This document shows positions 29,346 to 44,759 of a stretch of DNA of 64,000 nt, one piece after another (within the stretch, counting starts at the first letter, position 1; each line of letters starts with the position of its first letter). The DNA comes from Acidobacteriaceae bacterium (GTDB lineage: Bacteria; Acidobacteriota; Terriglobia; Terriglobales; Acidobacteriaceae). The notes below the pieces were generated by a model. It ran no database searches and was not told the DNA's origin. It saw only the letters and a program-made list of their open reading frames with translations. The stretch lies in contig JANXUR010000051.1 in NCBI GenBank assembly GCA_025356095.1, forward strand, positions 1-64,000, in the 5' to 3' direction. The translations under genes and the position numbers were made by a program.

Positions 29346-29372
29346 GGGGTCCTTCGCTTCGCTCAGGATGAC
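29346..29372. repeat. TCCTTCGCTTCGCTCAGGATGAC-type intergenic repeat
   Basis: A short motif with CTTCGCTTCGCTCAGGATGA lies between the fibre gene and the terminase. A degenerate relative (GATGCTTCGGCGTGTCCAGA) occurs near 43301-43320. Such motifs recur in acidobacterial intergenic DNA as far as I recall. Confidence 0.5.
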
Positions 29373-29400
29373 AGACAAACTTGGTTGTTCAGGGGGCGGA

Positions 29401-30972
29401 ATGACGGACTTGCAGTTGTTGTGTTTGTTGGGGAAGCATTTGGATGATCATCCGCCGGAGCTACGGATTGGGCAGCCGTGGATGAAGCAGCGGGGAGAGC
29501 GGCAAAGCGAGTCGAATATCCGCGAGCTGTTGATAAGCGGGTTGTTGAAGATTCGGGACAAGCGAGGATGTCACCGATTTCTGACTCCGAACCGGACGCA
29601 GTGGGAGTTTGAGCAGCGGGCAGGGCAGCGGAACATAGTGCTGAAGTCGCGGCAAGTAGGGATGACGACGTATATAGCGGCGCGATATTTTGTGAGCACG
29701 ATCACGCGGCCGGGCACGGTGACGATGCTGGTGGCGCATGACCAGGAGTCGGCAGAAGCGATTTTCCAGATTGTGAAGCGGTTTTGGGACAAGCTGCCGA
29801 AGGAGTTGCAAGTGGGAGCGCTGAAGCTGGCGCGGTGCAATGTGAGGGCGATTGCATTTGAGCATTTAGATAGTGAATTTCGGGTGGCAACGGCGGCGGA
29901 TGACAACGCGGGGCGGGGATTAACGATTCACAATTTACACTGTTCGGAAGTTTCGCGATGGCCGGCGAACGGCGAAGAGACGTTGCTGAGTTTGCGGGCG
30001 GCGGTACCTCCGGAGGGTACGGTTACGCTGGAGAGTACGCCGCAGGGCGCGGCAGGATTGTTTTACAACCAGTGGCTGCGTGCGGAAGAGATGGGCTATG
30101 TACGGCACTTTTTTCCGTGGTGGCTGGAGCCTTCGTACAAGTTGAAGGGCTTTCCGGTGGAATCGCCGACGGAGGAAGAGCTGTTTCTGATGGAGCGGCA
30201 TGGGCTGAGAGTGGAGCAGATTGCGTATCGGCGAACGATTCAGGCGACGTATCGCGAGAAGGCGGCGCAAGAGTATGCGGAAGATGCGCAGTCTTGCTTT
30301 TTGGCATCGAGCGAGTGCGCGTTTGACTTGGAAGCGATTGATGAGCAGATGCGGTGCGCGCCGGAGCCTGCGCAAAAGCGCGACAACGGGCGGCTGCAAG
30401 TATGGTTGCCCGCGGCGCAGGGGCGGCAATATATTTTGGGGGTGGATCCGGCGGGTGGAGGCGCGCTGGGCGACCACTCCTGTGTGCAGGTGATTGACCG
30501 GCTGACGGGGTTGCAATGCGCGGAGTTGCTGGCGCATCTGGGGCCGGCGGAGTTGGCGCCGCGAGTGGCAGAGCTGGCGCGTGAATATAACGGTGCGCTG
30601 GTTGCGATTGAGCGGAACAACCATGGGCACGCGGTGTTTGCGCACTTGATGCAATTGCCAGGGGCGGAGTCGCTGGCGGTGTATCAACAGGGTGGAAAGC
30701 CGGGGTGGCTGACGAATGTGGCGAGCCGTCCGCGGATGCTGGCGGTGCTGGCGGGGCTGCTGGAATCGGCGCCGGATTTGTTTAACAGTGCGCGACTGCT
30801 GGGCGAATGCCGGACGTTTGTGCGGGGAGCGGATGGAAGTCCGGCGGCAGCGGCGGGGGCGCATGATGACAGCGTGATGGCGATGGCGCTGGCGCAAGCG
30901 GTGCGGGTGGAGCGGGCGGCGGATGCGGGGCCGATGCACCTGGCGAGTTTGCAGTTGCGGGAGGCGAGCTAG
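29401..30972 (+). CDS. Phage terminase large subunit
   Basis: This 523-residue DNA-packaging motor has an ATPase domain with a deviant Walker A (LKSRQVGMTT, Lys about 82), Walker B (LHCSEVSRW, about 179-187) and coupling motif (TLESTPQGAAGLF). The RNase H-like nuclease domain has GVDPAGGGALGDHS (Asp about 349), AIERNNHG (Glu about 404) and AHDDSVMAMALA (Asp about 489-490). All expected catalytic residues are present, so the protein looks functional. ATG 29401 is chosen because GGGGGCGG precedes it and the upstream codons come from an intergenic repeat. Confidence 0.95.
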   Translation: MTDLQLLCLLGKHLDDHPPELRIGQPWMKQRGERQSESNIRELLISGLLKIRDKRGCHRFLTPNRTQWEFEQRAGQRNIVLKSRQVGMTTYIAARYFVSTITRPGTVTMLVAHDQESAEAIFQIVKRFWDKLPKELQVGALKLARCNVRAIAFEHLDSEFRVATAADDNAGRGLTIHNLHCSEVSRWPANGEETLLSLRAAVPPEGTVTLESTPQGAAGLFYNQWLRAEEMGYVRHFFPWWLEPSYKLKGFPVESPTEEELFLMERHGLRVEQIAYRRTIQATYREKAAQEYAEDAQSCFLASSECAFDLEAIDEQMRCAPEPAQKRDNGRLQVWLPAAQGRQYILGVDPAGGGALGDHSCVQVIDRLTGLQCAELLAHLGPAELAPRVAELAREYNGALVAIERNNHGHAVFAHLMQLPGAESLAVYQQGGKPGWLTNVASRPRMLAVLAGLLESAPDLFNSARLLGECRTFVRGADGSPAAAAGAHDDSVMAMALAQAVRVERAADAGPMHLASLQLREAS

Positions 30973-30988
30973 GAAAGCCAAGGGTTGG

Positions 30989-31020
30989 CCGCGGAGGCGC
31001 GGAGGCGCGGAGGCGCGGAG
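30989..31020. repeat. Short GGAGGCGC tandem repeat
   Basis: Four units of an 8-bp GCGCGGAG repeat lie just after the terminase stop. Confidence 0.8.
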
Positions 31021-31070
31021 AAGAGCGTTTGGATTGGGGTGGGTGGCGGGGAGGTGGGGCGGGCAAGCCG

Positions 31071-31085
31071 TTCCCAAAATGGGAA
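31071..31085. promoter_or_regulatory. Inverted repeat before the HipA-type kinase
   Basis: TTCCCA-AAA-TGGGAA is a perfect 6-bp inverted repeat about 100 bases upstream of the kinase start. It could be an operator; no clear promoter boxes were found around it. Confidence 0.3.
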
Positions 31086-31185
31086 GAGATTTACTGGCTT
31101 AGCGGTGGTAAGATGCGCGCAGATGCAGTGATGTTTGCTCGCGGGCGGCGCGCAGCTAGCGTGGCTTTGAGGGCGTGGAGCGGGA

Positions 31186-31992
31186 TTGCCAGTCTCGGCG
31201 GTGCAACACGTGCGGCGGATGCGGGGCGGGGCGCAGGGTCACCTGATGCGCTGCTCGGATGGGCAGTTTTATGTGGTAAAGTTCCGCAATAATCCTCAGC
31301 ATTTGCGGGTGTTGGCGAATGAGATGCTGGCGACGCGACTGGGGGAGCGGGTGGGGCTACCGGTGGCAGGTGCGGAAGTGGTGGACGTTTCGCAGTGGCT
31401 GGTGGAGAAGACGCCGGATTTGCGGATTCAGTTGGCAGGGCAAAGCATTCCGTGCAGTCCGGGATTGCAGTTTGGGTCGCGTTATGCGGTGGATCCGCGG
31501 TCGGGGATGGTGTTTGACTATTTGCCGGCGACCCTGTTGCCGAAGGTGCGCAACTTGCATGCGTTTGCGGGAATGTTGGCGCTGGATAAGTGGACGAACA
31601 ATACGAATGGGCGGCAGGCAGCGTTCTGGCGAGGTCCGAAAGAGCGGAAGTATACGGCGACATTTATTGATCAGGGGTATTGTTTTAACGCGGGCGAATG
31701 GAATTTTGCAGATGCGCCGTTGCGGGGAGTATTTGTAAACAACGACGTATACACGGGAGTAAGGGGATGGGCGTCTTTTGAGCCGTGGTTGACGCGGCTG
31801 GAAAGGCTGAGTGCCGATCTTATCTGGGAGGCGGCGAATGAAGTGCCGCCGGAGTTTTATGATCAGGACCAGGGCGCGATGGAAAAGTTGGTGGAGCAGT
31901 TGTTGCGACGGCAGTCGCGGGTGCGGGAGTTGATTTTGCAGTTCCGGTATTCGGTGCGGAATCCGTTTCCGGAGTGGAGGGACGAGGCGTAA
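31186..31992 (+). CDS. HipA-type Ser/Thr kinase-like protein (HipA_2 group)
   Basis: This 268-residue protein matches the small HipA-like kinase group usually paired with DUF3037. It has an ATP-binding strand YVVKFRNN (Lys about 32), a helix ANEMLATRLGERVGLPV (Glu about 46), a catalytic loop LALDKWTNNTNGRQ (Asp about 134, Asn about 139) and a metal site FIDQGYCF (Asp about 162). It lacks the HipA N-terminal subdomain. The start is TTG 31186; a GTG at 31201 is the alternative. It lies 39 bases before the DUF3037 gene and between terminase and portal, where unrelated cargo genes are often inserted in phages. Confidence 0.8.
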   Translation: MPVSAVQHVRRMRGGAQGHLMRCSDGQFYVVKFRNNPQHLRVLANEMLATRLGERVGLPVAGAEVVDVSQWLVEKTPDLRIQLAGQSIPCSPGLQFGSRYAVDPRSGMVFDYLPATLLPKVRNLHAFAGMLALDKWTNNTNGRQAAFWRGPKERKYTATFIDQGYCFNAGEWNFADAPLRGVFVNNDVYTGVRGWASFEPWLTRLERLSADLIWEAANEVPPEFYDQDQGAMEKLVEQLLRRQSRVRELILQFRYSVRNPFPEWRDEA

Positions 31993-32031
31993 GGGCAAAG
32001 TAGCCAGTGCCCAGTTGCCAGTTGCGAGTAG

Positions 32032-32850
32032 ATGGCGGAGAGGCGCCAATGCGAAGTGTTCTTGCTGCGTTATGTACCTGACGCGGTGAAGGACGAGTTT
32101 GTCAACATTGGGGTGATGGTGTTGGAAGCGGATGGCGGCTTTGCCGGAGTGCAGTTTACGCGGGATTGGCGGCGGGTGCGGTGTATTGATCCGGATGTGG
32201 ATTTGGAATATTTTGCGGCGCTGGAAGCGGAGTTGCGGGGGCGATTGGCGGATGCAGGCGATCGTGCGCAATTGATGAAGAAGCTGGAGGGGTCGCTTTC
32301 AGGAGCGATTCAACTGACGGCTGCGAAGGCGACCGAAGGGCTGGAGCCGGCGATAGAGTTGGGCACGGCGTTGGCATTGTATGTGGAGTCGCGTCCGGTG
32401 GAGGGGGTACGGCGGGTGCCGACGCGGCGCGAGCGGATTGCGGCGGCGATGCAGGAAGCTTTTATAGACGCGGGGGTTTGGGACGCGATGGCGAAGCAGA
32501 TTGCGGTGGCGCAGTTTACGCGGCCGGGGGATCCGTTGAAGCTGGATTGCGGGTATCGGGTGCAGGGTGTGGCGGGTGCGGAGATGAAGCTGTTTCATGC
32601 GCTGGCGATGAGCGCGAATCTGGAGTCGGCGCAGGTGATGGCGCTGAGCTATCCGAAGATTCGCGAGGGGATGCGGCGTGAGTTGAAGGTAGAGGCGTTA
32701 CTGACCACGATTGTGGAAGACGATTTGGCACGAGAGCAGGAAGGTATAGCCTTTGCGCTGGCGGTGATGGCGGAGAGTGAGATTCGGGTGCGGGCGGTAA
32801 GTGAGCTGACGCAGGTGGCGGCGGAAGTGCGGAGCGAGATGCGGTTGTAG
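32032..32850 (+). CDS. DUF3037 protein, partner of the HipA-type kinase
   Basis: This 272-residue protein begins with the DUF3037 signature CEVFLLRYVPDAVKDEFVNIGVMVLE, then FTRDWRRVRCIDPDVDLEYF. It is mostly helical with no signal peptide or membrane segment. DUF3037 genes are commonly next to HipA-like kinase genes, which suggests a two-part system in which this protein is the regulator or target; the biochemical role is unknown. A terminator follows at 32888, so the pair forms its own transcription unit end inside the late block. Confidence 0.8.
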   Translation: MAERRQCEVFLLRYVPDAVKDEFVNIGVMVLEADGGFAGVQFTRDWRRVRCIDPDVDLEYFAALEAELRGRLADAGDRAQLMKKLEGSLSGAIQLTAAKATEGLEPAIELGTALALYVESRPVEGVRRVPTRRERIAAAMQEAFIDAGVWDAMAKQIAVAQFTRPGDPLKLDCGYRVQGVAGAEMKLFHALAMSANLESAQVMALSYPKIREGMRRELKVEALLTTIVEDDLAREQEGIAFALAVMAESEIRVRAVSELTQVAAEVRSEMRL

Positions 32851-32887
32851 GGGCAGCGAACGAGCAGGGATGAACAGGGGTTTTGTG

Positions 32888-32918
32888 GCGCGTCCTCCAA
32901 GGGGCGCGCTTTTTGTTT
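32888..32918 (+). terminator. Rho-independent terminator after the kinase/DUF3037 pair
   Basis: An 8-bp stem (32888-32895 with 32902-32909, one G-T pair) is followed by TTTTTTGTTTT. It separates the kinase pair from the portal gene. Confidence 0.8.
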
Positions 32919-32957
32919 TGGTGGTGAATTTTTCTGCAGGCGGGTGGAAGGGACTTC

Positions 32958-34196
32958 ATGAAGATGCGAGAGACGTTGCGGGGCGCGATGCAGCGGATGG
33001 GTGGAGTGCGCGGAGGGCGAGCGATGGCTTCTGCGGGGGCAGTTGCAGGAGATTCGCGACGGACGCTGGCGTTGCCTTCTATCGTGACGAACTATGGGCC
33101 GCGAGCGGATGTAATGCCGAAGCCGACACCGCAGAATCTGCGGAAGTTTGCGGAGACGCCGCTGGCGCGCAAGGCAATCAACACGATCAAAGACCGCATC
33201 GCGGGTATGCGGTGGGCGGTGCAAATCAAGAAGAGCCGCACCCGGGCAGACGTGGTGAATGCGGATGAGCGCATTGCGACGCTGACGCGGAACTTTGAAG
33301 CGCCGAACGGAGACGATTCGTTCCGCAGTTTTTGCGAGCAGGTGCTGGAGGACGTGATCGTCGGCGGGTATGGTGCGATTGAGATGCAGGCGACGGGTGA
33401 TGCGAAGCATCCGCTAACGTTGTGGCCAGTGGATGGCGCGAGCATCCAGATTCGGACGGACTGGGACGGGCAAGCGGAGTCTGTGCGGTATGTGCAGCAG
33501 ACGACGGCGTTTGGCGCTAGTAATGGCGTGGAACTGAGTGACCGGGATTTGATTTATGTGCGGCTGAATGCGCGAACCTACACGCCCTTTGGATTGGGGC
33601 GGCTGGAGGTGGCGTTTGAAACGATCAACTCATTCTTGAGCGCGCATCGTTATGCGTCGCGGTTGGCAAGCAACTCGGTGGTGCAGTATGCGTTGTGGTT
33701 GCAGGGGCTGACGCAGGCCAATCACGAGCGGCTAATCCGCTGGTGGCAAGACGAGATTGAAGGCACGGGCAAGGTGCCGATCATGGCAGCGGAACAGAAG
33801 CCCGAGGTGCTGCGTTTTGGCGGGGGCACGGACGCGGACTTGCGATTGCAATGGCAGGAATTTTTGATTCGGATGATTGCGAATGCGTTTGACTTGCCTC
33901 CGCAGATGTTGGGCGCGACGGGGGACGTGAACAAAGCCACCGCGCAAGTCATGGACGATCAAGCGTTCGACCAGGCAATTGTGCCGACGGCGCGGCTGTT
34001 TGCGGAGTCGTTGACGCGGGGTGCGATTCAGAAAAAGCTGGGCTGGGATGACCTTGAATTTTTCTTTCCGGAGCTGGAGAGTGCTGGTGCGATGGCGAGG
34101 CTACAAGAAGATGCGTTGCTGATTAGCAGCGGGATTGAAACGGTGAATGAGGTGCGGGCGCGACGGGGTTTTGGGGCTTTGCCAGCAGGGATGTGA
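32958..34196 (+). CDS. Phage portal protein
   Basis: This 412-residue protein has the HK97/SPP1-type portal pattern: LARKAINTIKDRIAGMRWAV, a central FCEQVLEDVIVGGYGAIEM, DRDLIYVRLNARTYTPFGLG and, later, FLIRMIANAFDLPPQMLGA. The portal forms the dodecameric ring at one capsid vertex through which DNA is packaged. The order terminase, (cargo), portal, protease, scaffold, capsid is the usual one. ATG 32958 has a second in-frame ATG two codons on. No frameshift or truncation is seen. Confidence 0.93.
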   Translation: MKMRETLRGAMQRMGGVRGGRAMASAGAVAGDSRRTLALPSIVTNYGPRADVMPKPTPQNLRKFAETPLARKAINTIKDRIAGMRWAVQIKKSRTRADVVNADERIATLTRNFEAPNGDDSFRSFCEQVLEDVIVGGYGAIEMQATGDAKHPLTLWPVDGASIQIRTDWDGQAESVRYVQQTTAFGASNGVELSDRDLIYVRLNARTYTPFGLGRLEVAFETINSFLSAHRYASRLASNSVVQYALWLQGLTQANHERLIRWWQDEIEGTGKVPIMAAEQKPEVLRFGGGTDADLRLQWQEFLIRMIANAFDLPPQMLGATGDVNKATAQVMDDQAFDQAIVPTARLFAESLTRGAIQKKLGWDDLEFFFPELESAGAMARLQEDALLISSGIETVNEVRARRGFGALPAGM

Positions 34197-34260
34197 GGTG
34201 AGGTGCGGCGCAGCCTGCGCAGTGCGGGGCAGTTGGCTTTTAGGACGACGAAGGAGTGCG

Positions 34261-34878
34261 ATGAAGATACGAGTGGATGCGATGGCGTTGGCGATGCCTC
34301 GGGTGGCGGGACATCCGAATCGGGCGGAGTTTCGCGGGGTGCTGACGCTGGTGGATGTGGCGAGTGATCGCGCACCGGCGGGAGCCAAGGGACATCGGGT
34401 AGTGCTGACGCGCAGTGCTGCGGAGCGGGCGTTGCCGTCGCTGCTAGGGATGGCACTGGACTATGCGCCGAGCTTTGATCGTCACGAGCCGCAGCGCAAA
34501 GTGGGCGTGATCACGAGTGCGGATGTGGTGGGGCGCGAGATTCAGGTGAGCGGATTTTTATATGGCCGCGACTTTCCGGAGATTGTACGCGAGGTAGGAA
34601 AGGACAAAGCCGCGCAACTGGCGGCGAAGACGGGGACGGTGCGGAAGGCGATGCAAGGGCAGCACGCCACAGGGATGCAACTGGTGAAGGGTGCGCGCAG
34701 CGTAAAGGCTGCAAGTGCAAGTCAGCAGGCGTTGGGAATGTCGTATGAGATTGCCGACGCGCGTGTGGAAGATATGAACGCTGCGGTGTGGAAGTTGACG
34801 GAAGTGATGTTCACCGGTGCGGCCATATTGCGGCGTGACCGGGCCGCGTATCAGAACACGTGGATTGAGTTGGCGTAA
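34261..34878 (+). CDS. Prohead-protease-like protein
   Basis: This 205-residue protein lies in the protease position between portal and scaffold. It has a His in SFDRHEPQRKVGVIT and a Ser in LGMSYEIADARVED, the order expected for S78-type prohead proteases (His then Ser). KLTEVMFTGAAIL resembles the closing strand of that family. It would cleave the scaffold and capsid N-termini during maturation. The match is by pattern only. ATG 34261 follows GAAGGAG by five bases; the frame upstream overlaps the portal end and is not used. Confidence 0.6.
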   Translation: MKIRVDAMALAMPRVAGHPNRAEFRGVLTLVDVASDRAPAGAKGHRVVLTRSAAERALPSLLGMALDYAPSFDRHEPQRKVGVITSADVVGREIQVSGFLYGRDFPEIVREVGKDKAAQLAAKTGTVRKAMQGQHATGMQLVKGARSVKAASASQQALGMSYEIADARVEDMNAAVWKLTEVMFTGAAILRRDRAAYQNTWIELA

Positions 34879-34922
34879 CAGCGAACGAACAGGGTGAGGC
34901 AACTGGGTTGAAGGAGGAAAGT

Positions 34923-35429
34923 ATGAACGAAGAGTTGGTACAGCAAATGGCGGCTAGCGCGGCGCGTCTGGCACAGGCGGCGGAAGCGTTAGAAGGCGCG
35001 GTGACGCGGCTGGACGCACAACAGGAAACCATGCAGAACAGTTGGGAAAACGTTCTGCAAAACAAGGTCGCGCATATTCTGGCGGCGGTGGATGAAAAGT
35101 TCGATGCCAGGGTGGAGGCTGAGGCGGATGCCCGGGCTGGCGAGGGTACGAGCGCGGCGGCAAGTGCAGCTGGTGGTGCGGATGAGCTCAGTCAACTGCG
35201 TCAGCAGGTGGAAGAGTTGAGCCGCGCCAATGTTGAGCTGCGAGCGCAGTCGGGCCACGCAACGCGTAAGACGCTGACTCCGGCGGTGAGCGCGCTGCTG
35301 ACCAAGAGCGGGGTCACAGTGGATGATCACTTTGACCGCGAGGTACTGGATAAGGCGCTGGCTCCGCTGAGCATTGAGCAGCGGATTGCGGTAAAGGCGG
35401 AGATGGCGCGGGCAGGGTTGATCAGCTAG
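34923..35429 (+). CDS. Scaffold-like coiled-coil protein
   Basis: This 168-residue protein is almost entirely helical, with heptad-like segments (ELVQQMAASAARLAQAAEAL and ELSQLRQQVEELSRANVEL) separated by an Ala/Gly/Ser linker. It has no Cys and no membrane segment. Its place directly before the capsid gene and after the protease-like gene fits a capsid scaffold. AAGGAGGAAAG precedes ATG 34923 by two bases; the TTG at 34908 lies inside that site. Confidence 0.65.
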   Translation: MNEELVQQMAASAARLAQAAEALEGAVTRLDAQQETMQNSWENVLQNKVAHILAAVDEKFDARVEAEADARAGEGTSAAASAAGGADELSQLRQQVEELSRANVELRAQSGHATRKTLTPAVSALLTKSGVTVDDHFDREVLDKALAPLSIEQRIAVKAEMARAGLIS

Positions 35430-35433
35430 GCGC

Positions 35434-35469
35434 GAGTTGCGCGAGTTGCTCGAGTTGCTCGAGTTGCTC
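35434..35469. repeat. 9-bp tandem repeat GAGTTGCTC, four units
   Basis: Units start at 35434, 35443, 35452 and 35461, just after the scaffold-like gene. The first unit ends in CGC. Confidence 0.9.
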
Positions 35470-35495
35470 GATACACATTTTGGATAGATGAAACC

Positions 35496-35520
35496 ACGCG
35501 GCTTGCGAGCCGCGTTTTTA
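35496..35520 (+). terminator. Hairpin terminator/attenuator before the capsid gene
   Basis: A perfect 8-bp stem ACGCGGCT/AGCCGCGT (35496-35503 with 35508-35515) has a 4-base loop and is followed by TTTTATTTG. It may separate scaffold from capsid expression, with a capsid promoter downstream. Confidence 0.8.
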
Positions 35521-35646
35521 TTTGTCCGCAGAGTTGTTTCACCAGATTGATTTTGCGCGGACGGCGGATCGCGGCACACGCAAGTGGGCCGGGAGCTGGC
35601 TTGAACCGCAGGGGACTAAGGTCCCAATTCCAACGCAGGAGAAGCC

Positions 35647-36618
35647 ATGAGAGCTCAATTTTTGGATTTGCACGCTGCCGCTGATTTTCTAGGACCAGGT
35701 GCAGTCGAAGTCAACATGTATCAACAGGAAATTTTCGACATTGTGCGCCGTCGTGGTGCGTTTGGCCAGCGCATCAAGTATGTGCCCGCCACGGGCCATC
35801 CGTCGCGCTTTTTTGAAGAGACGGCGATTGCATCGCCGACGGCGACACAGGCATTTGTGGATCCGCGCAACATTGCGACGGTGGTGCAATCGCCGACGCG
35901 TGTGGAGCGCAGCGTGCCGTTGAAGGCGCTGGTGTCGCAGATCAACTACAACCTGTTTGATCTGGAAGTGGGCCAGCAGCAGAGCCAGTTTGCGTACCTG
36001 CAAGCCAAAGATCTGGCAGATTCCGTCAGTGGTTTGCTGCGGACCCATGACCAGAATTTGTGGAATGGCAGCGATACCTCGCTGACCACGCCGACCACCA
36101 GCCAATACTTTGGCGTGAGTGGGCAGATTACTGCAGGCGGCCAGGTAGTGACGGCGCAGACCACGGACAGCATTGTGGACATCATCAAGTCGCAGATTTC
36201 TACGATGATGTCGAACTCGGGTTACGAGGTACGTCCGACTGCGATTTATGTAAATCCGGTGCTGGCGGACTTGATTGACCGCGAGATCAAAACCGCATTC
36301 AACGTGGTGTTGAACACGGTAGAGATCACCGGTGGATTGCGGGTAAAGGCGCTGGCCACACAGGCTGGCGAACTGCCCATTATTGCTGACTGGTCGTTGC
36401 CGTACACCGGCACGGTGGGTTCAGGCCTGGCAACGCTGCCCGCGTACATCGTGAGTGAAGAGCTCATTGAATACCACTGGCTGACCGATCCGAATCCGCG
36501 GGTGTTCCGTTTGGGACTGACCGGAAGCTTGGCATCGCAACTGGTGGTGGTGAAGTTTGGCGCGGTGGTGGTAAAGGGCGCGAACTATGCGCATGCACTG
36601 GTGAACGTAAAGCGGTAA
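35647..36618 (+). CDS. Phage major capsid protein (HK97-like fold)
   Basis: This 323-residue protein fits a major capsid protein. It has an early helix with YQQEIFDIVRRRGAFGQRI, then LVSQINYNLFDLEVG, a long helix with IVDIIKSQISTMMSNSGYE, the P-domain strand PTAIYVNPVLADLID, and a closing segment LASQLVVVKFGAVVVKG. It lies at the expected place after the scaffold-like gene and has its own upstream hairpin, as highly expressed capsid genes often do. A GGAG ribosome site sits about seven bases before ATG 35647. A long N-terminal pro-region is not obvious. Confidence 0.85.
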   Translation: MRAQFLDLHAAADFLGPGAVEVNMYQQEIFDIVRRRGAFGQRIKYVPATGHPSRFFEETAIASPTATQAFVDPRNIATVVQSPTRVERSVPLKALVSQINYNLFDLEVGQQQSQFAYLQAKDLADSVSGLLRTHDQNLWNGSDTSLTTPTTSQYFGVSGQITAGGQVVTAQTTDSIVDIIKSQISTMMSNSGYEVRPTAIYVNPVLADLIDREIKTAFNVVLNTVEITGGLRVKALATQAGELPIIADWSLPYTGTVGSGLATLPAYIVSEELIEYHWLTDPNPRVFRLGLTGSLASQLVVVKFGAVVVKGANYAHALVNVKR

Positions 36619-36711
36619 CCGCCGCAGAGCGAAAATCCCGCCCTTGGCCGACGCGAATTGGCGGCTGGGGCGGGGCACCGGGTGTTGTGGTGGGGAAGGC
36701 GAGGAGAGCGG

Positions 36712-37338
36712 ATGAGTTACTTGATGGCATCGGAATACGAGACGTATGGAGTGGATCCGCAGACGCCGCCGCAGTGGGTGGCGGCGGCATCGTCGCTGGT
36801 AGATGCGTATTGCCGGCGCGCGTCGTTGAATGTAACGCAGTACAACGAGCGTTTGCGGGTAGCTGCGGGGCGCAACACGGTGCATCTGACGTATCTGCCG
36901 CTGGCACCGCTGGCTCCGGCCACCTTGCCGCTGGTGCAGGTGCAAGGGCGCTACGCGCTGCCGAGGCGTGGCGAAGAGATTGCGCTGGAACCGCTGGTGG
37001 AAGTAGCGACGGTCTTCGGCTTGCCGGGCACGTGGAGCACGCTAGATGCGACCACGGTGGACTTTCAAGCGGACACAGGCGAATTGGCGTTTCCGGTGAA
37101 TGTGCTGGGGCTGGGCTTTAACGAAGTGAACGTGACCTACACCGCTGGGTTGGTGGTAATTCCGGATGTGGTGAAGTTTGCGGTGGCACAGATTGTGCGG
37201 AACGCGCAGGCGACTCCGGCGTTGAACTTGAAGCGCAGCCGGCTGGACCGAATGCAGATGGAGTACTTCAGCGATTCGCTGATTGATTCCACGGTGAAGA
37301 TGTCGCTAGCGGCCTATGTAGCGCAGAAGGTCGGGTAA
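36712..37338 (+). CDS. Head-tail connector (adaptor) protein
   Basis: This 208-residue protein begins with helices PQWVAAASSLVDAYCRRASLN and continues with beta strands, ending in a helix with PDVVKFAVAQIVRNAQA. The layout is that of gp6/gp15-type adaptor proteins that dock under the portal. GAGGAGAG lies three bases before ATG 36712. The next gene starts two bases after the stop, so they are cotranscribed. Confidence 0.7.
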   Translation: MSYLMASEYETYGVDPQTPPQWVAAASSLVDAYCRRASLNVTQYNERLRVAAGRNTVHLTYLPLAPLAPATLPLVQVQGRYALPRRGEEIALEPLVEVATVFGLPGTWSTLDATTVDFQADTGELAFPVNVLGLGFNEVNVTYTAGLVVIPDVVKFAVAQIVRNAQATPALNLKRSRLDRMQMEYFSDSLIDSTVKMSLAAYVAQKVG

Positions 37339-37340
37339 AC

Positions 37341-37763
37341 ATGGGCAGCACAACGACACGCTGGCCGGTAGGACAGAGTCAGGGAATTTCGCGGGCGGCG
37401 GATGCATTGCTGCGCTCGCTAGGCGGGACGGAAGTGACGTTTTTGTTTCCGATGCCGGTGGGTGGGGGGACGCTGAGCGAGTTGGGCGCAGCGGGGCAGA
37501 CGGCGCAACAGGTGATGTTTTCGCCCGCACTGATTAAGAGCCTGGCACCGCCGAATGACGGCAGCAAGGTGCGGTTTCAGGTGGTGATTGCGGCATCGAG
37601 CGTAAACCCGGTGCTGGATGAGATGCAGGTGGCGACGGGAAATGATTTGTTTGAGGCGTCTTTGGGGATGTTGTATGAAGGCCGACTGCTGCGAGTAAAA
37701 AGTGTGGTGACGGAGCACTTCGCGGAGTCGGCGTATTTGTTTCTGGTGACGGTGACGGATTGA
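37341..37763 (+). CDS. Head-closure-like phage protein
   Basis: This 140-residue beta-rich protein lies directly after the connector. Segments such as GSKVRFQVVIAASSVNPVLD and LLRVKSVVTEHFAESAYLFLVTVTD fit a small barrel of the head-closure (stopper) type. The assignment depends mainly on order and size. Confidence 0.55.
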   Translation: MGSTTTRWPVGQSQGISRAADALLRSLGGTEVTFLFPMPVGGGTLSELGAAGQTAQQVMFSPALIKSLAPPNDGSKVRFQVVIAASSVNPVLDEMQVATGNDLFEASLGMLYEGRLLRVKSVVTEHFAESAYLFLVTVTD

Positions 37764-37821
37764 GGCAAAGTAAGCGGCGGTGCGAGGCTGCACCTTGGTG
37801 GTAACGACTGGAGACACGATC

Positions 37822-38349
37822 ATGCAATTCAGCAAAGACAGTTTTTACATGGCACTGCATGACCGGCTGGCAGTGGTGAATCCGCTGCGGACGGTGATGC
37901 TGGATGGAGCGACGCGTCCGGCGATTGTGGTAGCGGAAAATGAGCCTGTGGGATTGACCGAGGCGCAGCCCAACGTGTTTTACCTGTGGTGGGGCAACGC
38001 ATTGCCGGTGAAGGGGCAGAGTGAGGGCAAGCGTCCGATGCTGGCGCTGGAAGCGGCGATTTTTTACCACACGGCGGGCACGGCCGATGATGCGTCGGAC
38101 CGCGGACGAACGCTGGCAGAGCTGGATCTGGAGCTGTTGCAGATGTGTTCACCGGCCTCTACGGCGAAGCAGGATTTTACGCAGACACCAGCCGCGCCGC
38201 TGGGGACGAATTTGTTGTGGATACGTCCGGCGTTTGAGGCGTTGGCCGTGAAGGATGCAGAGGCCAGCCGGAGCGGCAATGCTGCGAACCTGGTGTGGCG
38301 CAAAGCGAAAACTGTTGTGTTTTATTTTCCGGAGGTGGATGCAGCATGA
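37822..38349 (+). CDS. Tail-completion-like phage protein
   Basis: This 175-residue protein starts MQFSKDSFYMALHDRLAVV. Its middle reads KRPMLALEAAIFYHTAGT and an EL-rich helix follows. Size and position fit tail-completion or terminator proteins that cap the tail tube, but no signature is firm. ATG 37822 follows a CTGGAG site. The stop overlaps the next start as ATGA. Confidence 0.5.
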   Translation: MQFSKDSFYMALHDRLAVVNPLRTVMLDGATRPAIVVAENEPVGLTEAQPNVFYLWWGNALPVKGQSEGKRPMLALEAAIFYHTAGTADDASDRGRTLAELDLELLQMCSPASTAKQDFTQTPAAPLGTNLLWIRPAFEALAVKDAEASRSGNAANLVWRKAKTVVFYFPEVDAA

Positions 38350-39377
38350 GCACAGCGAGCATGGCGACAGCATATCCAGTGCGCGGGGCGATGGTGCCAG
38401 TGGCACGCACACTCCGCGCCTATTTTGCTCCGGTGGCGCGAACCACGGAGACGCCCGCGATTTTTGATCCGGCAGTGCATGGCGCGTTTGCGCTGGAGGC
38501 ACCGCCCGCTCCGTGGCTGAGTCTGGGATGGGTAGAAGGCTTTTCGCGTGCTGCGGCGACGAAGTTGCAGGTGGTAGCGGCAGGCAGCAAAGGGGCGCCG
38601 GGCAGCACGTTTCGCGATGCACTGGCCTCGCTGGTGGAGTTTGACTTTCGCGAATGGGGCAAGCTGCAGATGGCGCTGGCGGGGGGGTCGCAGCACATGA
38701 ATGTGCTGGCGGCCAATACCACCAGCACTCCGCAACCTTCTGGTGCTACGCCGATTGCGGCGGTGGCGCTACTGGCGGGCTCCACGGCCAGCAAGCTGGT
38801 GGTGGGAGCAGGCGCGCTGGGCGGCTTTAACGTTGGCGACTTGCTGGCAGTGGATGCGGACTACGCGCAGCAGACCGGGTATGTGGGCACGGGCATTGCA
38901 GCAGCGTATGTAAAGCAGTCGTCGGACGTGCGCAATGACGCAAATTATGTGCGGCGCGTCACCTTCAACGTGGGCCGGGTGGTGAGCAAGACCGTAGATT
39001 CGCTGGTGTTGGGGCAGCCCCTGTTGGGGGGAAGTCCTGCGGCGAATGCCAGCGTACAGAAAGTGGCGGCGTTTGTGGATCGTGAGGGTGGGTCATTTTT
39101 CCAGGAGTGGTCCGCACTATTTGTATGGCCAGAAGAGGCGGGCGGGCGAATCTGTTTGTACTATCCGCGACTGACGCCTCGAGCGTTGGCGGGCGCGGGC
39201 GGGAATGCTGGCGCAGGGGCGAACGCGCCGGAAGTGGCAACCGACGTGATGCCGCCGCTGAGTGCGCGAGGCTTGCATGCGTCGTTTCTGGCACTGCCGT
39301 ACACAGATATCAATGACAACGAAACTGTGGTGTGCTATCGCAGCTATTTTCCGTCGTCCTCGGCGTCGGTGTACTAG
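38346..39377 (+). CDS. Phage structural protein, tail-tube candidate
   Basis: This 343-residue protein has an N-terminal pattern PWLSLGWVEGFSRAAATKLQ, then VEFDFREWGKLQMALAGGSQ, which resembles major tail proteins that pack as a tube. The rest is beta-rich. It is coupled to the previous gene by ATGA. No sheath-like domain is seen, so a siphovirus-like or tubeless particle is possible. Function is inferred from order and general pattern. Confidence 0.5.
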   Translation: MSTASMATAYPVRGAMVPVARTLRAYFAPVARTTETPAIFDPAVHGAFALEAPPAPWLSLGWVEGFSRAAATKLQVVAAGSKGAPGSTFRDALASLVEFDFREWGKLQMALAGGSQHMNVLAANTTSTPQPSGATPIAAVALLAGSTASKLVVGAGALGGFNVGDLLAVDADYAQQTGYVGTGIAAAYVKQSSDVRNDANYVRRVTFNVGRVVSKTVDSLVLGQPLLGGSPAANASVQKVAAFVDREGGSFFQEWSALFVWPEEAGGRICLYYPRLTPRALAGAGGNAGAGANAPEVATDVMPPLSARGLHASFLALPYTDINDNETVVCYRSYFPSSSASVY

Positions 39378-39628
39378 GGCGGGCGAGCGCGGCGGGGCCA
39401 AGGCGGGTCCAAGGTAGGTCAGAAGGCAGGTCAGAAGGCAGGGTTACTATCGTTACCCCATGTGGTGTGATCTTGTTCGGATTCCGTAAATGGTTCCGCG
39501 CTTTGAGGCCATGTGCACAGTTTGACAAGTGGGCGCGGGCATTTGCCCGTTAACTTAGAAGCTCTTGAGTTATGCACGGTGCTGCCGCGCCCATGCGCGT
39601 TGCAAGCAATGATTGTGAAGACGCAAAC
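39378..39628. other. Gap in the tail module, no gene
   Basis: This 251-base gap lies where tail chaperone and tape-measure genes are expected in a long-tailed phage. It holds two copies of GGTCAGAAGGCA (near 39417-39440) and no supported gene. Confidence 0.6.
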
Positions 39629-41974
39629 ATGAAACTAAAGATTGACAATTACGATGGGCTGGGTCCGCAGGACTACACGCCTTGGCTGGAGCGCAGCAAA
39701 GCGCCACAGGTGCGGCGCAAGCTAAATAAGCCTAGCGAGTTGCACTTTGCGCTGGCCGCTGCCACCAGCACGCTGGTAGTGCCGGCCGAGGCGGCGCGCA
39801 TCACACTTTCCACCGATAGCGGGGGCGTGATTTTTACCGGCTACATGGTGGGCGCGCCAGCCTTTGAATACTTAGGCTGGGGGCAGCAAGGGCCTGCCTA
39901 TCGCTACCAGTGCGTGGCACGCAGTGACGAGTTTCTGCTGGATCGCAAGCGGTTGCCCGCGCGGGCCGCGATGGTGGCACGCAACGCCGGCAACACGCTG
40001 AAGCAACTTGCTACCGACTTGCTACCAGCGCAGTTTGACGTGACGGGCGTGCAGAATCTGGATGTGGTGCCGGGGTTTACGGTGCAGCCAGAAAAGCCAT
40101 GGTCGTACCATGCTGGATTGCTGGCCACGCTGGCGCGAGGCGCATACCGGGCCAGCAACGGTGCCATTGCATTGGCCGCGCTCGGGGCAACTACGCACAG
40201 CTTGGACGAAGCGTGGGCAAACTTTTCTCCGCAGAATCTGCTATTGCAGGCTGTGCCCGCGCATTTGAATGATGCGACTGTGGTGGGCCTTCTGGAACCG
40301 CAAGCGTATGTAAAAGATTACTTTGTGGGCGATGGTGTGACGCTGCGCTTCTATATGTCGCAGAAGCCATTTGACCGCACGCAAAGCACGACGCTGACCG
40401 AAGAATACTTGGGCAGTGTGCTGGATGCGACGCGCTGGACGACGGTGGATCCTGCTCACGCGGTGAGCGTGAGCGGGGGCAGCCTGCAGGTGAATGGCGG
40501 CACGGGCAGCGATGGTGGCACGCTGGTGGAATTTGCCGAACTGGTGGAATTGGGCGGGTCTGCGGTGTTGCAGCACGGCACATTTACCTTCAGCGCAGCT
40601 TCTACGGGCGTGCTGGGCGGGCTGTATGCCGGTGCGGTGAATGTTGCAGGCTGCCTGGCTGGATTCCGCATCACAGCGGCGGGGGCGCAATCGCAGATAC
40701 AAGCACTCATCAACGGGGCGCTGACCGGTGTGGTGACTACGACGGTGGGCGGACATCAGTATGCGCTGAGCACGCGGCTGTATGCGACGGAAGCATACCG
40801 CAGGCGGCAGCGCTTTCACTCGTCGGTGCGGGGGGCGGGGAATCCGCGAGGCGGCGATTTGCTGAATGCGGACGTGCGCGTGGTGGTGTTGTTGCAGGAT
40901 ATTGATCCGGCGAATGCGGCGACTCTGGTGGCTCCGGCGACGGTGTTGTATGACGGGCTGATTGCGCTGGCTCCAGAGAATTGCACGTATGCGCTGGTGA
41001 ACGCTGCGACGATGCACTGCGCTGCGGCGTTTACGCGCATTCTGCGTAAAACCGATGCGGAAGTGCGGAGTGCGCTGCCGGCTCAAGGATTCCGCACACG
41101 GCTGGAAGGCGCGCTGCTGGATGGCGCGGAGTGCCACATAACGCTGTTGCCGGAGCTGGCATTTTTCGCGGCGTATCCGCCCGCAGCCAATGAGCAGATT
41201 GTAGTGCACTATCGCGGGGGCGGGCAGTCGGCGGCGCGGGTGCAGAATGCGGCGGATATTGCAGCCCTTGCCAAGGGCAGCGATGATGGCATACGCGGCG
41301 CGTTGTTGCATGTGCTGGAGCCGCCTCCGCGTACGCAGGCCGATTGCGAAAATGCTGCACTGGCATTGATGGATGATGGCGTGCTGAAGGCGTGGAAGGG
41401 AACGTACAAAACGTGGAGCGATTTTCTTTCGCCGACCAATGCGGATATTTTTCCGGGCGATGCGGTGAGCGTGAATGCGCCCTCGCGCAACGCGGTGTTT
41501 ACCGCTATGGTGCGCGAAGTGGTGGTGGATGTGGCGGATCCGCTGAATGACCGCAGCGAGTACACGATTCATTTTGCGACGGATGCGGCAGAAGTACAAC
41601 AGCCGCTGGCGTTTGCTCTGAATCATGGCAAGGCACCGCTGTTGCCGAATTTGATCACGCAGACCACCACAGGCGTGGGCAGCAACTATCTGGCAGATTT
41701 GACCGAGGCGCAGATCACAATTGTTGCTTCCACTACCGTGACGATGGATGCAGGGGTGGCTCCGCCGAGCGGTGGTGGCATTGAAGTGCGGCGCAGCGAT
41801 GTGGGCTGGGGCGCGGGCAATGACCTGAATTTGATTGGCCGCTTCAATGCCCAGGTGTTTAGCGCGCCGCGATTGTCTCGGGTGCAGGATTATTTTTTGC
41901 GACAGTATGACGGGAGCTCGCCTCCGAAATACTCGCGCTATTCGGCGGCGCTGCATTTGGATTGGCCGCTGTAG
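39629..41974 (+). CDS. Large phage tail/hub-like protein
   Basis: This 781-residue protein starts with MKLKIDNYDGLGPQDYTPWL and a beta-rich region with RITLSTDSGGVIFTGYMVG. Further on are a FDVTGVQNLDVVPGF strand and a late DIFPGDAVSVNAPS segment. Such hub or distal tail proteins of the gp27 type form the cap of the tail and hold the fibres. The match is by general pattern. ATG 39629 is chosen because the fold begins there; the longer frame has a Cys/Asn-rich start. A terminator follows, ending the structural operon. Confidence 0.6.
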   Translation: MKLKIDNYDGLGPQDYTPWLERSKAPQVRRKLNKPSELHFALAAATSTLVVPAEAARITLSTDSGGVIFTGYMVGAPAFEYLGWGQQGPAYRYQCVARSDEFLLDRKRLPARAAMVARNAGNTLKQLATDLLPAQFDVTGVQNLDVVPGFTVQPEKPWSYHAGLLATLARGAYRASNGAIALAALGATTHSLDEAWANFSPQNLLLQAVPAHLNDATVVGLLEPQAYVKDYFVGDGVTLRFYMSQKPFDRTQSTTLTEEYLGSVLDATRWTTVDPAHAVSVSGGSLQVNGGTGSDGGTLVEFAELVELGGSAVLQHGTFTFSAASTGVLGGLYAGAVNVAGCLAGFRITAAGAQSQIQALINGALTGVVTTTVGGHQYALSTRLYATEAYRRRQRFHSSVRGAGNPRGGDLLNADVRVVVLLQDIDPANAATLVAPATVLYDGLIALAPENCTYALVNAATMHCAAAFTRILRKTDAEVRSALPAQGFRTRLEGALLDGAECHITLLPELAFFAAYPPAANEQIVVHYRGGGQSAARVQNAADIAALAKGSDDGIRGALLHVLEPPPRTQADCENAALALMDDGVLKAWKGTYKTWSDFLSPTNADIFPGDAVSVNAPSRNAVFTAMVREVVVDVADPLNDRSEYTIHFATDAAEVQQPLAFALNHGKAPLLPNLITQTTTGVGSNYLADLTEAQITIVASTTVTMDAGVAPPSGGGIEVRRSDVGWGAGNDLNLIGRFNAQVFSAPRLSRVQDYFLRQYDGSSPPKYSRYSAALHLDWPL

Positions 41975-42000
41975 AAAGCAGTAGGTGGGAGTGGGGTGGC

Positions 42001-42036
42001 GCCGCATCAGAAGTCTGGATGCGGCATTCGTGTTTT
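42001..42036 (+). terminator. Terminator after the hub-like gene
   Basis: GCCGCATC (42001-42008) pairs with GATGCGGC (42018-42025), followed by ATTCGTGTTTTT. Confidence 0.75.
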
Positions 42037-42093
42037 TGGGGATGGTGCTGGTGGCAACGTATCTGGTGTGCCAGAAAAACAGGGGAGTGGGCT

Positions 42094-42786
42094 ATGTGGG
42101 ATTGGATTGGGCAGCATCAATTTGTAATTGGCGTGGTAGGAATGTATGTATTTTCCGCAGTAACGCAGGCCTTGCCGCAGCCGCAAAGCAGCGGCGGGTG
42201 GTATCTGTTCACTTACAACTTGATACATGCGCTGGCGGCAAACTTCAGCAGCATGAGGCAGATGGCAATGGCCCCGAAGGCAACGTCGCCCACGGTGGTG
42301 CCTAAGTCCGCGGGATTTGTGTTGCTGCTGCTGGCGATGACTTTGGGCGTAGGCAGCGGCGTGGGGTGCAAGTCGGCGGCGTATCGCGTACACCCCGGGG
42401 CGGTGGATGTTTTCGATTCGCAGAGTTACGACTCGCTGCTGGTGGCGCAGGCGACGCTGGCGGAAGCGAAGAGTGAAGCGCAGTCGGGTGCGCTGCCCAA
42501 GGAGGCCGTGGCACCGTTGAATGCTGCCATTCGGGCGTATGACGTGGCGGAGACGGCGTGGCAGGCGTATCACGCGGTGGGTGCGAGTGCGGGTACCGCG
42601 GGCAACGTGGGCAACGCGGGCAACGTGGGCGCAGCGCAACGCGTTTTGCTGGATGCGCTGATGGCAATGACGGCTGCAATTGGCGAATTGAAAAACGTGC
42701 TGCCGCAGCAGCCGGGGAGTTCAGCAGGGAGTGCAGCAGGGAGTGCAGCAGCGAGTGCAGCAGTGCAGACTGGAGGCAAACAGTGA
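42094..42786 (+). CDS. Prophage membrane protein, possible holin/lipoprotein fusion
   Basis: This 230-residue protein has two unlike halves. Residues 1-55 start MWDWIGQHQFVIGVVGMYVF and hold a membrane helix and an aromatic region, as in small phage membrane proteins. A second hydrophobic stretch (SAGFVLLLLAMTLGVGSG) follows, ending in VGC, close to a lipobox, and then a helical Ala-rich region. It reads like a small membrane protein fused to a lipoprotein. A lysis role (holin plus spanin-like) is suggested by its place after the tail genes but is not shown. GGGGAG precedes ATG 42094 by six bases. Confidence 0.55.
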   Translation: MWDWIGQHQFVIGVVGMYVFSAVTQALPQPQSSGGWYLFTYNLIHALAANFSSMRQMAMAPKATSPTVVPKSAGFVLLLLAMTLGVGSGVGCKSAAYRVHPGAVDVFDSQSYDSLLVAQATLAEAKSEAQSGALPKEAVAPLNAAIRAYDVAETAWQAYHAVGASAGTAGNVGNAGNVGAAQRVLLDALMAMTAAIGELKNVLPQQPGSSAGSAAGSAAASAAVQTGGKQ

Positions 42787-43001
42787 CCACGCTACAGTAC
42801 ATTCTTTCGATTTTAGGCATTGCGCTGGGTGCGGCGCAGGGACTGGCCGGCGGCCCCGGCGGTAACGTGCAAAATGCGCTGAGCGTGGCGCAGGCGCTGG
42901 AAAAGATCATTCAGTCAGCGCTCACGGCGTATCAGCAACATACCGGACAACCGATTGACCCGGAATTGCTGAAGCCGATGCAAGGGATTGCGCAGGTCTA
43001 A
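42783..43001 (+). CDS. Small prophage membrane/helical protein
   Basis: This 72-residue protein starts at GTG 42783, which overlaps the previous stop as GTGA. It has one hydrophobic segment (LQYILSILGIALGAAQGLAG), then an amphipathic helix with ALSVAQALEKIIQSALTAY. Size and position fit a second lysis-cassette protein. A longer frame begins at 42558 but overlaps the upstream gene in another frame. The family is not recognised. Confidence 0.6.
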   Translation: MTTLQYILSILGIALGAAQGLAGGPGGNVQNALSVAQALEKIIQSALTAYQQHTGQPIDPELLKPMQGIAQV

Positions 43002-43362: not shown

Positions 43363-44325
43363 ATGCCGCTGGTGCCACCAAAAAACATCCAACGCATGGC
43401 GTCCGCTGCGCAACGATGGAACCTGCCGCGCAGCTTGTCGCTCTATCGGGCGGAGAAAGACACGACGATTGCTGGCGCTGCCCCCAAGTGGGTGCTTCGG
43501 GGTGCTGGGGGTGACGAGGATTTCTACATTGCGAAGTTCGGATCCACGAACGGACACATCGAGACGTTTACTGAGTTGTTCAATAACCAGCTCGCGCTTG
43601 CTCTCGATTTGCGGGTTGCCCACAGCGGGCTAGTGAGTCTCGATGGACAGCCGTATTTCGTGACGCGGAACTTCCGCGCTGGGGAGCAACTGATTCACGG
43701 GGGCTTTTTGGTGGCTGAAGTGCTAGGAGAGAAGGAGGAGGAACTTGAACAGATCAAACGCCCGCAAGAGCAGCAGTTCTTCGACATCGAGCTCATTCAG
43801 AGTGCGATCCAGCAATATTGTGGAGCGGCGTATGCGTCGGTTTGGTCTGCGTTCCTAGAGATGTTGGCATTCGATGGGCTAATTGGTGCCGCAGATCGGC
43901 ACCTTAGGAACTGGGGTGTGCTCCGCCCGCAAACCACTGATAAAGAAGAGGCAATGCGGCTTGCGCCCATTTATGACTCGGCGAGGGCACTGCTCTGGGA
44001 CTTGACCGAAGACAAGTTGTTGAAAATGGATGCGGATGCGAGTACGCTCGAAGTTTACGTGCGGCGGGCGAAGCCGCATATCGGGGTTCCTGGCCAAAAG
44101 CAGGCTTGTGACCATTTTGGGTTGTTGGCCGAGCTTTTAGCGCGCGATCGGCATCCAACTGCTCAGGCCGTGCGAAAAGTTGCCGATGCACCCAGTGTGG
44201 ATCGCGCTGCGCGTATTTTGTCCGGCTTTCCATTCGACCGCGGTTTTTCCGCCGTCCGAAAGCGAGTTCTGCTCAAAGTCTTGCTACTGCGCCGGAGCAT
44301 GCTTTGCGAGCTCCAGAAAGGATGA
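43363..44325 (+). CDS. HipA-type kinase without the N-terminal subdomain (HipT-like)
   Basis: This 320-residue kinase has a Gly-rich loop region TTIAGAAPKWVLR, an ATP-lysine strand DEDFYIAKFG, the catalytic loop GLIGAADRHLRNWGV (Asp about 178, Asn about 183) and a metal-site segment APIYDSARALLWD (Asp about 205). These match the HipA C-terminal kinase core; the N-terminal HipA subdomain is missing and is instead encoded by the next gene. HipA kinases phosphorylate aminoacyl-tRNA synthetases, and HipT targets TrpS; the target here is unknown. The start is uncertain: ATG 43363 is preferred over GTG 43270, whose first codons lie in repeat-like DNA. Confidence 0.78.
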   Translation: MPLVPPKNIQRMASAAQRWNLPRSLSLYRAEKDTTIAGAAPKWVLRGAGGDEDFYIAKFGSTNGHIETFTELFNNQLALALDLRVAHSGLVSLDGQPYFVTRNFRAGEQLIHGGFLVAEVLGEKEEELEQIKRPQEQQFFDIELIQSAIQQYCGAAYASVWSAFLEMLAFDGLIGAADRHLRNWGVLRPQTTDKEEAMRLAPIYDSARALLWDLTEDKLLKMDADASTLEVYVRRAKPHIGVPGQKQACDHFGLLAELLARDRHPTAQAVRKVADAPSVDRAARILSGFPFDRGFSAVRKRVLLKVLLLRRSMLCELQKG

Positions 44326-44331
44326 GCGTCC

Positions 44332-44685
44332 GTGAAGTTCTGGAGAACCAAGACACCACCGCCCCACATTGAGATGTTGTTTGGGAACACTCCTTTCGCC
44401 CGTTTGGAAAAGGACGGAGATGAGTTTGTGTTCACCTACTTGCCGGTATTCAAGGATTTGCGGCTGGCACCGTTGCCTGGGCTGCCATCCGATAGGGTCG
44501 AGCATCGGGCGCGCGACCTGTTCCTCTTTTTTCAAGAGCGGATTCCAGAGTTAAGCCGTCCTGAAATCAGGGCGTGGCTTGACCAAGAGAAAATTGATGA
44601 GTCAGATCAAATACGCCTGCTCGGACTGCTTTCCCGGCGCGCAGTGACTGACTCTTTTGAACTGCGCTTAGAAGAAGCCGGATAG
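44332..44685 (+). CDS. HipA N-terminal-like subunit (HipS-like)
   Basis: This 117-residue protein resembles the first subdomain of HipA. A strand with GNTPFARLEKDGDEFVFTYLP is followed by LRLAPLPGLPSD and a helix RARDLFLFFQERIPELSRPEI, the part that packs on the kinase N-lobe. In the known HipBST system a separate HipS of about this size acts as antitoxin for HipT. Here the order is kinase first, then HipS-like, six bases apart, with no HipB-like DNA-binding gene next to them. The start is GTG 44332. A strong terminator follows. Confidence 0.7.
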   Translation: MKFWRTKTPPPHIEMLFGNTPFARLEKDGDEFVFTYLPVFKDLRLAPLPGLPSDRVEHRARDLFLFFQERIPELSRPEIRAWLDQEKIDESDQIRLLGLLSRRAVTDSFELRLEEAG

Positions 44686-44720
44686 TGGAGCATCACGCCG
44701 ACACCGAGGGCATAAACCAG

Positions 44721-44759
44721 AAAGTCCCGCCCGGTCTTGACCAAGGCGGGACTTTTTGT
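44721..44759. terminator. Strong bidirectional terminator at the right end of the prophage-like region
   Basis: A perfect 11-bp stem AAAGTCCCGCC/GGCGGGACTTT (44721-44731 with 44745-44755) is followed by TTGTT. It separates the HipS-like gene from the oppositely oriented E2 gene. Confidence 0.9.

What the first reader, a model, noticed from the sequence alone, without database searches (positions are those of the whole stretch)
43363..44685. Split HipA kinase with reversed order and no HipB (HipT-HipS-like pair)
Sequence shows a HipA kinase core (Asp-x4-Asn loop ADRHLRN and APIYDSARA) that lacks the HipA N-terminal subdomain. Six bases later a separate 117-residue protein resembles that subdomain. 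In the described HipBST system the order is HipB, HipS, HipT. Here the kinase comes first and no HTH gene is next to the pair. The Gly-rich loop segment reads TTIAG, not a Ser-x-Ser-type autophosphorylation motif as in HipT. It is the last unit of a prophage-like element. It may be a new subtype of tripartite or bipartite kinase toxin.
Basis: partly seen in the sequence, partly recalled or inferred. Interest (0 to 1): 0.72.

Follow-up and report, generated by a model that had tools for sequence, protein, structure and literature searches.

The report
Prophage kinase toxin with HipS partner
A bacterial virus integrated in this genome carries a two-gene module, a HipA-type protein kinase followed by a small protein that looks like the missing front part of HipA and probably keeps the kinase switched off; this gene layout has already been published (hipJS), so it is a good but not a revolutionary find.

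Summary
At 43363-44325 lies a HipA-type kinase core (Pfam HipA_C, 67 bits; cut-off 30.5) without the HipA N-subdomain. Six bases later, 44332-44685 encodes a 117-aa HipS-like protein (Pfam Couple_hipA, 28.5 bits; cut-off 22.5). Predicted structures match CtkA, HipT and HipA for the kinase, and HipS or the HipA N-domain for the small protein. The interpretation as a new subtype fails on its main point: the layout (kinase first, HipS second, no HTH gene) was described in 2021 as hipJS (Gerdes et al., PMC8262856). It is no loner either: 42 of 43 relatives found by kinase sequence alone, in several phyla, have a ~130-aa HipS gene directly downstream, and an HTH gene is nearest upstream in only 2 of 42. 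"TTIAG" is not odd: its second Thr aligns with HipA Ser150. New here: these kinases form one branch apart from the HipS-HIRAN (hipIN-type) kinases sampled; the window copy and its nearest viral relative both sit among phage genes; and the HipS tryptophan needed in E. coli is absent from all 34 HipS aligned. Most likely a kinase toxin with its antitoxin, carried by a prophage. No function was tested.

The parts
43363..44325 (+). HipA-type kinase core (320 aa from ATG 43363; frame open back to GTG 43270), probable toxin; no N-subdomain-1
   Evidence: Pfam HipA_C E 2.2e-18; PADLOC PDC-M03A E 3.4e-29; fold Z 26 to CtkA, about 18 to HipT/HipA; catalytic residues invariant in 34 relatives
43462..43488 (+). 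Gly-rich loop segment, TTIAGAAPK = residues 34-42; Thr35 aligns with the autophosphorylated Ser150 of HipA; commonest family pattern [ST]-[IV]-x-G-D-A-P-K
   Evidence: alignment A7 and column counts; literature on Ser150 and Ser57/59
43894..43911 (+). Catalytic loop D178-R-H-x-x-N183 (in ADRHLRN)
   Evidence: Asp178, Arg179, His180, Asn183 invariant in 34 of 34
43975..43977 (+). Mg-binding-type Asp205 (in PIYDSARA)
   Evidence: invariant in 34 of 34
44332..44685 (+). HipS-like protein, 117 aa, probable antitoxin; no HIRAN domain
   Evidence: Pfam Couple_hipA 28.5 bits; profile of relatives finds HipS structures at E 2e-7; fold Z 11.9 to HipS(Lp), 11.6 to HipS(Ec), 11.4 to HipA N-domain
44718..44758 (+). 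Hairpin with T-run just after hipS, likely transcription terminator of the pair
   Evidence: -26.6 kcal/mol, z -6.1
29368..43001 (+). Phage structural block that precedes the pair (terminase 29368-30972, portal 32958-34196, head-tail adaptor 36658-37338; tail-like genes by position only)
   Evidence: PHROGs matches

Best explanation
A two-gene toxin-antitoxin module of the hipJS layout, carried by a prophage. The first gene makes a HipA-type Ser/Thr kinase without the N-terminal lid. The second, translated directly after it, makes the missing lid as a separate protein (HipS) that should bind over the Gly-rich loop and active site and hold the kinase off. If HipS is lost or bypassed, the free kinase would phosphorylate a cell target (in known relatives an aminoacyl-tRNA synthetase) and stop growth. 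Because it rides on phage DNA, it probably serves the phage: keeping the prophage in the cell or stopping competing phages. Shown here: both domains, intact kinase residues, strict pairing across phyla, phage location. Inferred: toxicity, neutralisation, target, benefit to the phage.
For: Domain matches above curated cut-offs. Predicted folds: kinase part to CtkA Z 26.4, HipT(Lp) 18.4, HipA about 18; small protein to HipS(Lp) Z 11.9, HipS(Ec) 11.6, HipA N-domain 11.4, with unrelated folds at 3.2 or less. Catalytic residues invariant in 34 of 34. 42 of 43 loci found with kinase sequence alone have HipS next downstream, most overlapping by 4 nt or within 14 nt, which suggests coupled translation. 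Kinase and HipS distances are correlated over 41 pairs (r 0.91, 0 of 2000 permutations). In genome G678 the kinase gene of the relative is broken while HipS stays intact, as expected of a toxin and antitoxin, though it is one case. Near relatives sit in mobile DNA: L081 next to phage head genes, L114 near conjugation genes. HipS is the antitoxin of HipT in E. coli (PMC10627512).
Against: No toxicity, binding or target was tested. HipS Trp65, essential for neutralisation in E. coli HipBST, has no counterpart in any of 34 HipS here, so neutralisation must use other contacts, or not happen. The phospho-acceptor position is Pro, Ala, Lys, Asp or Gln in 11 of 34 kinases, so autophosphorylation is not universal. 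The kinase is nearer in fold to CtkA, which I do not know as part of a toxin-antitoxin pair, than to HipT. No DNA-binding partner, so autoregulation is unexplained. The fused-chain model gives no reported interface error, so the docking was not tested.
Confidence: 0.72

Rival explanations
1. HipS is not an antitoxin but the kinase's own second half: the two chains together form the working kinase (a split enzyme), and HipS is needed for activity or folding.
For: HipS matches the HipA N-subdomain, which in HipA is part of the toxin itself; the neutralising Trp65 of E. coli HipS is absent; strict pairing and coupled genes fit a two-chain enzyme as well.
Against: In the characterised case of a separate HipS (HipBST) it inhibits the kinase (PMC10627512). 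In G678 HipS persists with a broken kinase gene.
Confidence: 0.15
2. A signalling kinase with a regulatory subunit, not a toxin: the pair modifies host or phage proteins during lysogeny, as a phage moron.
For: Closest fold is CtkA, not a HipT; the same prophage also encodes a HipA_2-DUF3037 pair and a dual-specificity phosphatase, which hints at protein phosphorylation as a theme.
Against: Presence in many genomes of unrelated phyla with no shared neighbours fits a selfish or defence module better than a dedicated phage signalling enzyme.
Confidence: 0.1
3. A hipIN module that has recently lost its HIRAN domain (degenerate), rather than a stable lineage.
For: PADLOC PDC-M03B matches only within the first 114 of 245 positions; Gerdes et al. 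speculate that hipJS came from hipIN by HIRAN loss.
Against: The short-HipS kinases are one branch (96/70; 44 rows) separate from the hipIN-type ones, and no HIRAN remnant follows the gene, so any loss was old and the short form is stable.
Confidence: 0.03

Closest known systems
hipJS modules (Gerdes, Baerentsen & Brodersen 2021, PMC8262856)
   Same: Kinase gene first, HipS-only gene second, no DNA-binding partner; kinase lacks N-subdomain-1; [quoted passage not shown]
   Different: Cannot be shown to be the same clade: their accession table could not be read here. They give 279-321 aa for the HipG/I/J/M group; most relatives here are about 325-360 aa (window 320). A single-sequence search of solved structures with the window kinase does not reach HipA or HipT
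hipIN modules / PADLOC candidate PDC-M03 (HipS-HIRAN antitoxin)
   Same: Same gene order; PDC-M03A matches the kinase at E 3e-29, PDC-M03B the HipS part. That PDC-M03 equals hipIN is my inference
   Different: HipN carries a C-terminal HIRAN domain; the window protein ends after HipS. Kinases fall on separate branches
hipBST (E. coli O127, Legionella, Haemophilus)
   Same: Split HipA: separate HipS and lid-less kinase; folds match
   Different: Order there is hipB-hipS-hipT with an HTH protein; here kinase-HipS and no HTH; HipS Trp65 absent here
CtkA (solved structures 3akj, 3akk, 3akl)
   Same: Nearest solved relative of the kinase in sequence (E 2e-15 by profile) and fold (Z 26)
   Different: 17% identity; whether it has a HipS partner was not examined here

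Membership tests
hipJS module | HipA-homologous kinase core with Gly-rich loop, catalytic and Mg-binding motifs | tested here: met
   HipA_C above cut-off; residues invariant in 34 relatives
hipJS module | Kinase lacks N-subdomain-1 | tested here: met
   No Couple_hipA match in the kinase; model aligns to HipA from about HipA residue 118 on
hipJS module | Downstream gene encodes HipS without HIRAN or HTH | tested here: met
   117 aa, Couple_hipA only; HipS fold Z 11.9
hipJS module | Kinase falls in main clade XI, in the HipJ branch of the published tree | not testable with these tools
   Published accession list and tree are in supplements that could not be read; own tree puts the kinases apart from ordinary HipA and next to hipIN/HipL-like types
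hipJS module | Kinase length 279-321 aa (range given for HipG, HipI, HipJ and HipM together) | tested here: inconclusive
   Window 320 aa from ATG 43363 (351 from GTG 43270); most relatives about 325-360
hipBST module | Order hipB-hipS-hipT with an HTH HipB | tested here: not met
   Kinase first; no HTH beside the pair; 42 of 43 relatives kinase first
hipBST module | HipS Trp65 wedge at the Gly-rich loop (found in many, not all, HipS) | tested here: not met
   No Trp at the aligned positions in 34 HipS
hipIN module | C-terminal HIRAN domain on the antitoxin | tested here: not met
   Protein ends after the HipS part; PDC-M03B matched only at 21-114 of 245
toxin-antitoxin system (function) | Kinase toxic alone, neutralised by HipS | not testable with these tools
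   needs expression tests

The most novel reading that the evidence does not exclude
The kinases with the G-D-A-P-K-type loop and a HipS gene directly downstream are a broad lineage not covered by the published Hip kinase tree, with its own way of neutralisation (no Trp wedge; an invariant Arg-x-Pro in HipS instead) and a phage-borne early branch that includes the window pair.
Probability: 0.35. Interest if true: 0.5.

Novelty: new member of a known kind. Interest (0 to 1): 0.33.

Why it matters
hipJS modules are listed in one bioinformatic survey and, as far as the held papers show, none has been tested. This work adds some 45 well-defined pairs in at least six phyla and in phages, shows that the pairing is strict, and shows that the contact by which HipS silences HipT in E. 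coli cannot be the one used here. That makes two questions testable: is a HipS without the tryptophan an antitoxin or a kinase subunit, and does a prophage use such a pair against other phages.

Tried and rejected
Single-sequence scans of genome contigs and viral contigs found nothing; phage and plasmid records gave only weak partial hits; alignments were needed. A conserved HipB was looked for and not found: nearest upstream ORF has HTH_3 in 2 of 42; the second of these was not pinned to a locus. Conserved neighbours beyond the pair: none. Attachment-site repeats around the prophage: only 13-15 base matches, judged chance. Small HTH gene hidden in the window upstream region: only a 43-aa and a 147-aa ORF, the latter without Pfam or PHROGs match. 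Readthrough fusion: kinase and hipS are in the same frame separated by TGA; used only as a device to fold both in one chain, not claimed as biology. More members of the window+L081 branch in viral contigs: none found. A paper for PDC-M03 by name: none held.

Full report
What is there. The kinase frame is open from GTG 43270 to the stop at 44325. ATG 43363 is the likelier start, because the relative found among viral contigs (L081, 38% identity) aligns from about that point and nothing before it is conserved. The protein matches Pfam HipA_C at 67 bits and PADLOC PDC-M03A at E 3e-29. It has no match to the HipA N-terminal domain. Six bases after its stop, a GTG start opens a 117-aa protein that matches Couple_hipA, the HipA N-terminal domain, at 28.5 bits against a cut-off of 22.5. 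A strong hairpin with a T-run ends the unit (z -6.1), and the next gene, a dihydrolipoamide acyltransferase-type gene, runs the other way.

Surroundings. The block before the pair is phage: terminase, portal and a head-tail adaptor match PHROGs families. No attachment repeat was found, so the exact prophage ends are not fixed. No HTH protein adjoins the pair. The genome also has two ordinary full-length HipA proteins elsewhere.

Relatives. A search of genomes of the same phylum with the PDC-M03A profile gave four further kinases with a short HipS downstream, and two with a long partner of hipIN type. An alignment of the short-partner kinases was then used to scan all genome and viral contigs. 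The scan used kinase sequence only. Of 43 clear kinase relatives outside the window, 42 have a HipS-like gene of about 130 aa immediately downstream on the same strand; the 43rd has a partial one. By record title (mostly MAGs, not checked) they come from Acidobacteriota, Bacteroidota, Verrucomicrobiota, Planctomycetota, Cyanobacteriota and a Gammaproteobacterium, and some from viral contigs. The genes overlap by 4 nt in the commonest case. Neighbours outside the pair are not shared: among 42 nearest upstream ORFs the commonest Pfam families occur twice, and HTH_3 is in 2. Kinase and HipS distances go together (r 0.91 over 41 pairs), as expected of genes inherited as a unit; shared ancestry alone would give this too.

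Tree. In a maximum-likelihood tree of 61 kinase cores the 44 short-HipS kinases are one side of a branch (support 96/70), next to a group with the hipIN-type and HipL-like kinases and away from ordinary HipA. The window kinase and L081 form the first branch inside it (100/99). A third member, in another genome of the same family as the window's, was found later (L100, 42% identity, with HipS). A fourth, in genome G678, has a kinase gene broken by a frame change and an insert, with HipS intact, near conjugation genes. L081 lies among phage genes: a head-protease/head-protein-type gene follows closely.

Structure. A model of both proteins in one chain, made by reading the single in-frame TGA as a residue, has mean pLDDT 87 and pTM 0.76. 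The kinase part matches CtkA best (Z 26.4, 282 residues, 3.4 A), then HipT of Legionella (18.4) and HipA (about 18). The small protein alone (pLDDT 82) matches HipS of Legionella (Z 11.9, 100 residues, 2.2 A), HipS of E. coli (11.6) and the HipA N-domain (11.4), with the first unrelated fold at 3.2. Profile searches of solved structures agree. The interface was not assessed.

Gly-rich loop. TTIAG is not a departure. In the family the segment is most often [ST]-[IV]-x-G-D-A-P-K; the second Thr of the window lies where HipA has Ser150 and HipT Ser57 (literature; the placing of Ser57 is my reading of the two motifs). Ser or Thr is there in 23 of 34. The other 11, including L081, have none, so regulation by autophosphorylation cannot be general.

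HipS contact. In E. coli, HipS Trp65 is wedged at the HipT Gly-rich loop and is needed for neutralisation (PMC10627512). The aligned region here reads R-[IL]-P-x-x-x and no Trp occurs there in any of 34 sequences, whereas Arg70 and Pro72 are invariant. If HipS is the antitoxin, it works by other contacts. The same paper notes HipS orthologues with Pro in place of Trp65.

What is known. Gerdes and colleagues (PMC8262856) define hipJS as a kinase followed by a HipS-only putative antitoxin without a DNA-binding protein, and hipIN as the HIRAN-bearing counterpart. The window pair meets the layout criteria of hipJS. Whether it belongs to their HipJ branch could not be tested, since their table is in supplements. 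Two facts suggest that it may lie outside their set: most relatives are longer than the 279-321 aa they give for the short kinases, and a single-sequence search of solved structures with the window kinase does not reach HipA or HipT.

Verdict. A real, intact, phage-borne kinase-HipS pair of a published layout. Function as a toxin-antitoxin module is the best reading (0.72); its use to the phage is inference. The surprise value is moderate and lies in the breadth of the lineage, its phage branch, and the missing tryptophan.

Noticed in passing
window 31186-32850 (+): A second HipA-related pair in the same prophage, between terminase and portal: HipA_2 (PF20613, 39.7 bits, cut-off 27) followed by DUF3037 (PF11236, 56.5 bits, cut-off 22.6). 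The usual DRH-type catalytic motif is not obvious in the HipA_2 protein (reads DKWTNNTNGRQ).
   Followed up: partly
window 24110-24565 (+): Dual-specificity phosphatase (DSPc, 38.5 bits, cut-off 33.5) upstream of the phage packaging genes; with two HipA-type kinases in the same element this looks like a phosphorylation theme.
   Followed up: no
L114:13282-15617 (genome G678): Relative of the pair with the kinase gene broken by a frame change and an insert of roughly 0.9 kb, HipS intact, in a region with a conjugation coupling protein and a single-strand binding protein.
   Followed up: partly
L083:4333-4823: A Phd/RelE-looking toxin-antitoxin pair (read by eye) directly upstream of the kinase-HipS pair in a viral contig.
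   Followed up: no
window 24753-29279 (+): A 1508-aa open frame with no Pfam or PHROGs match just before the terminase gene.
   Followed up: no
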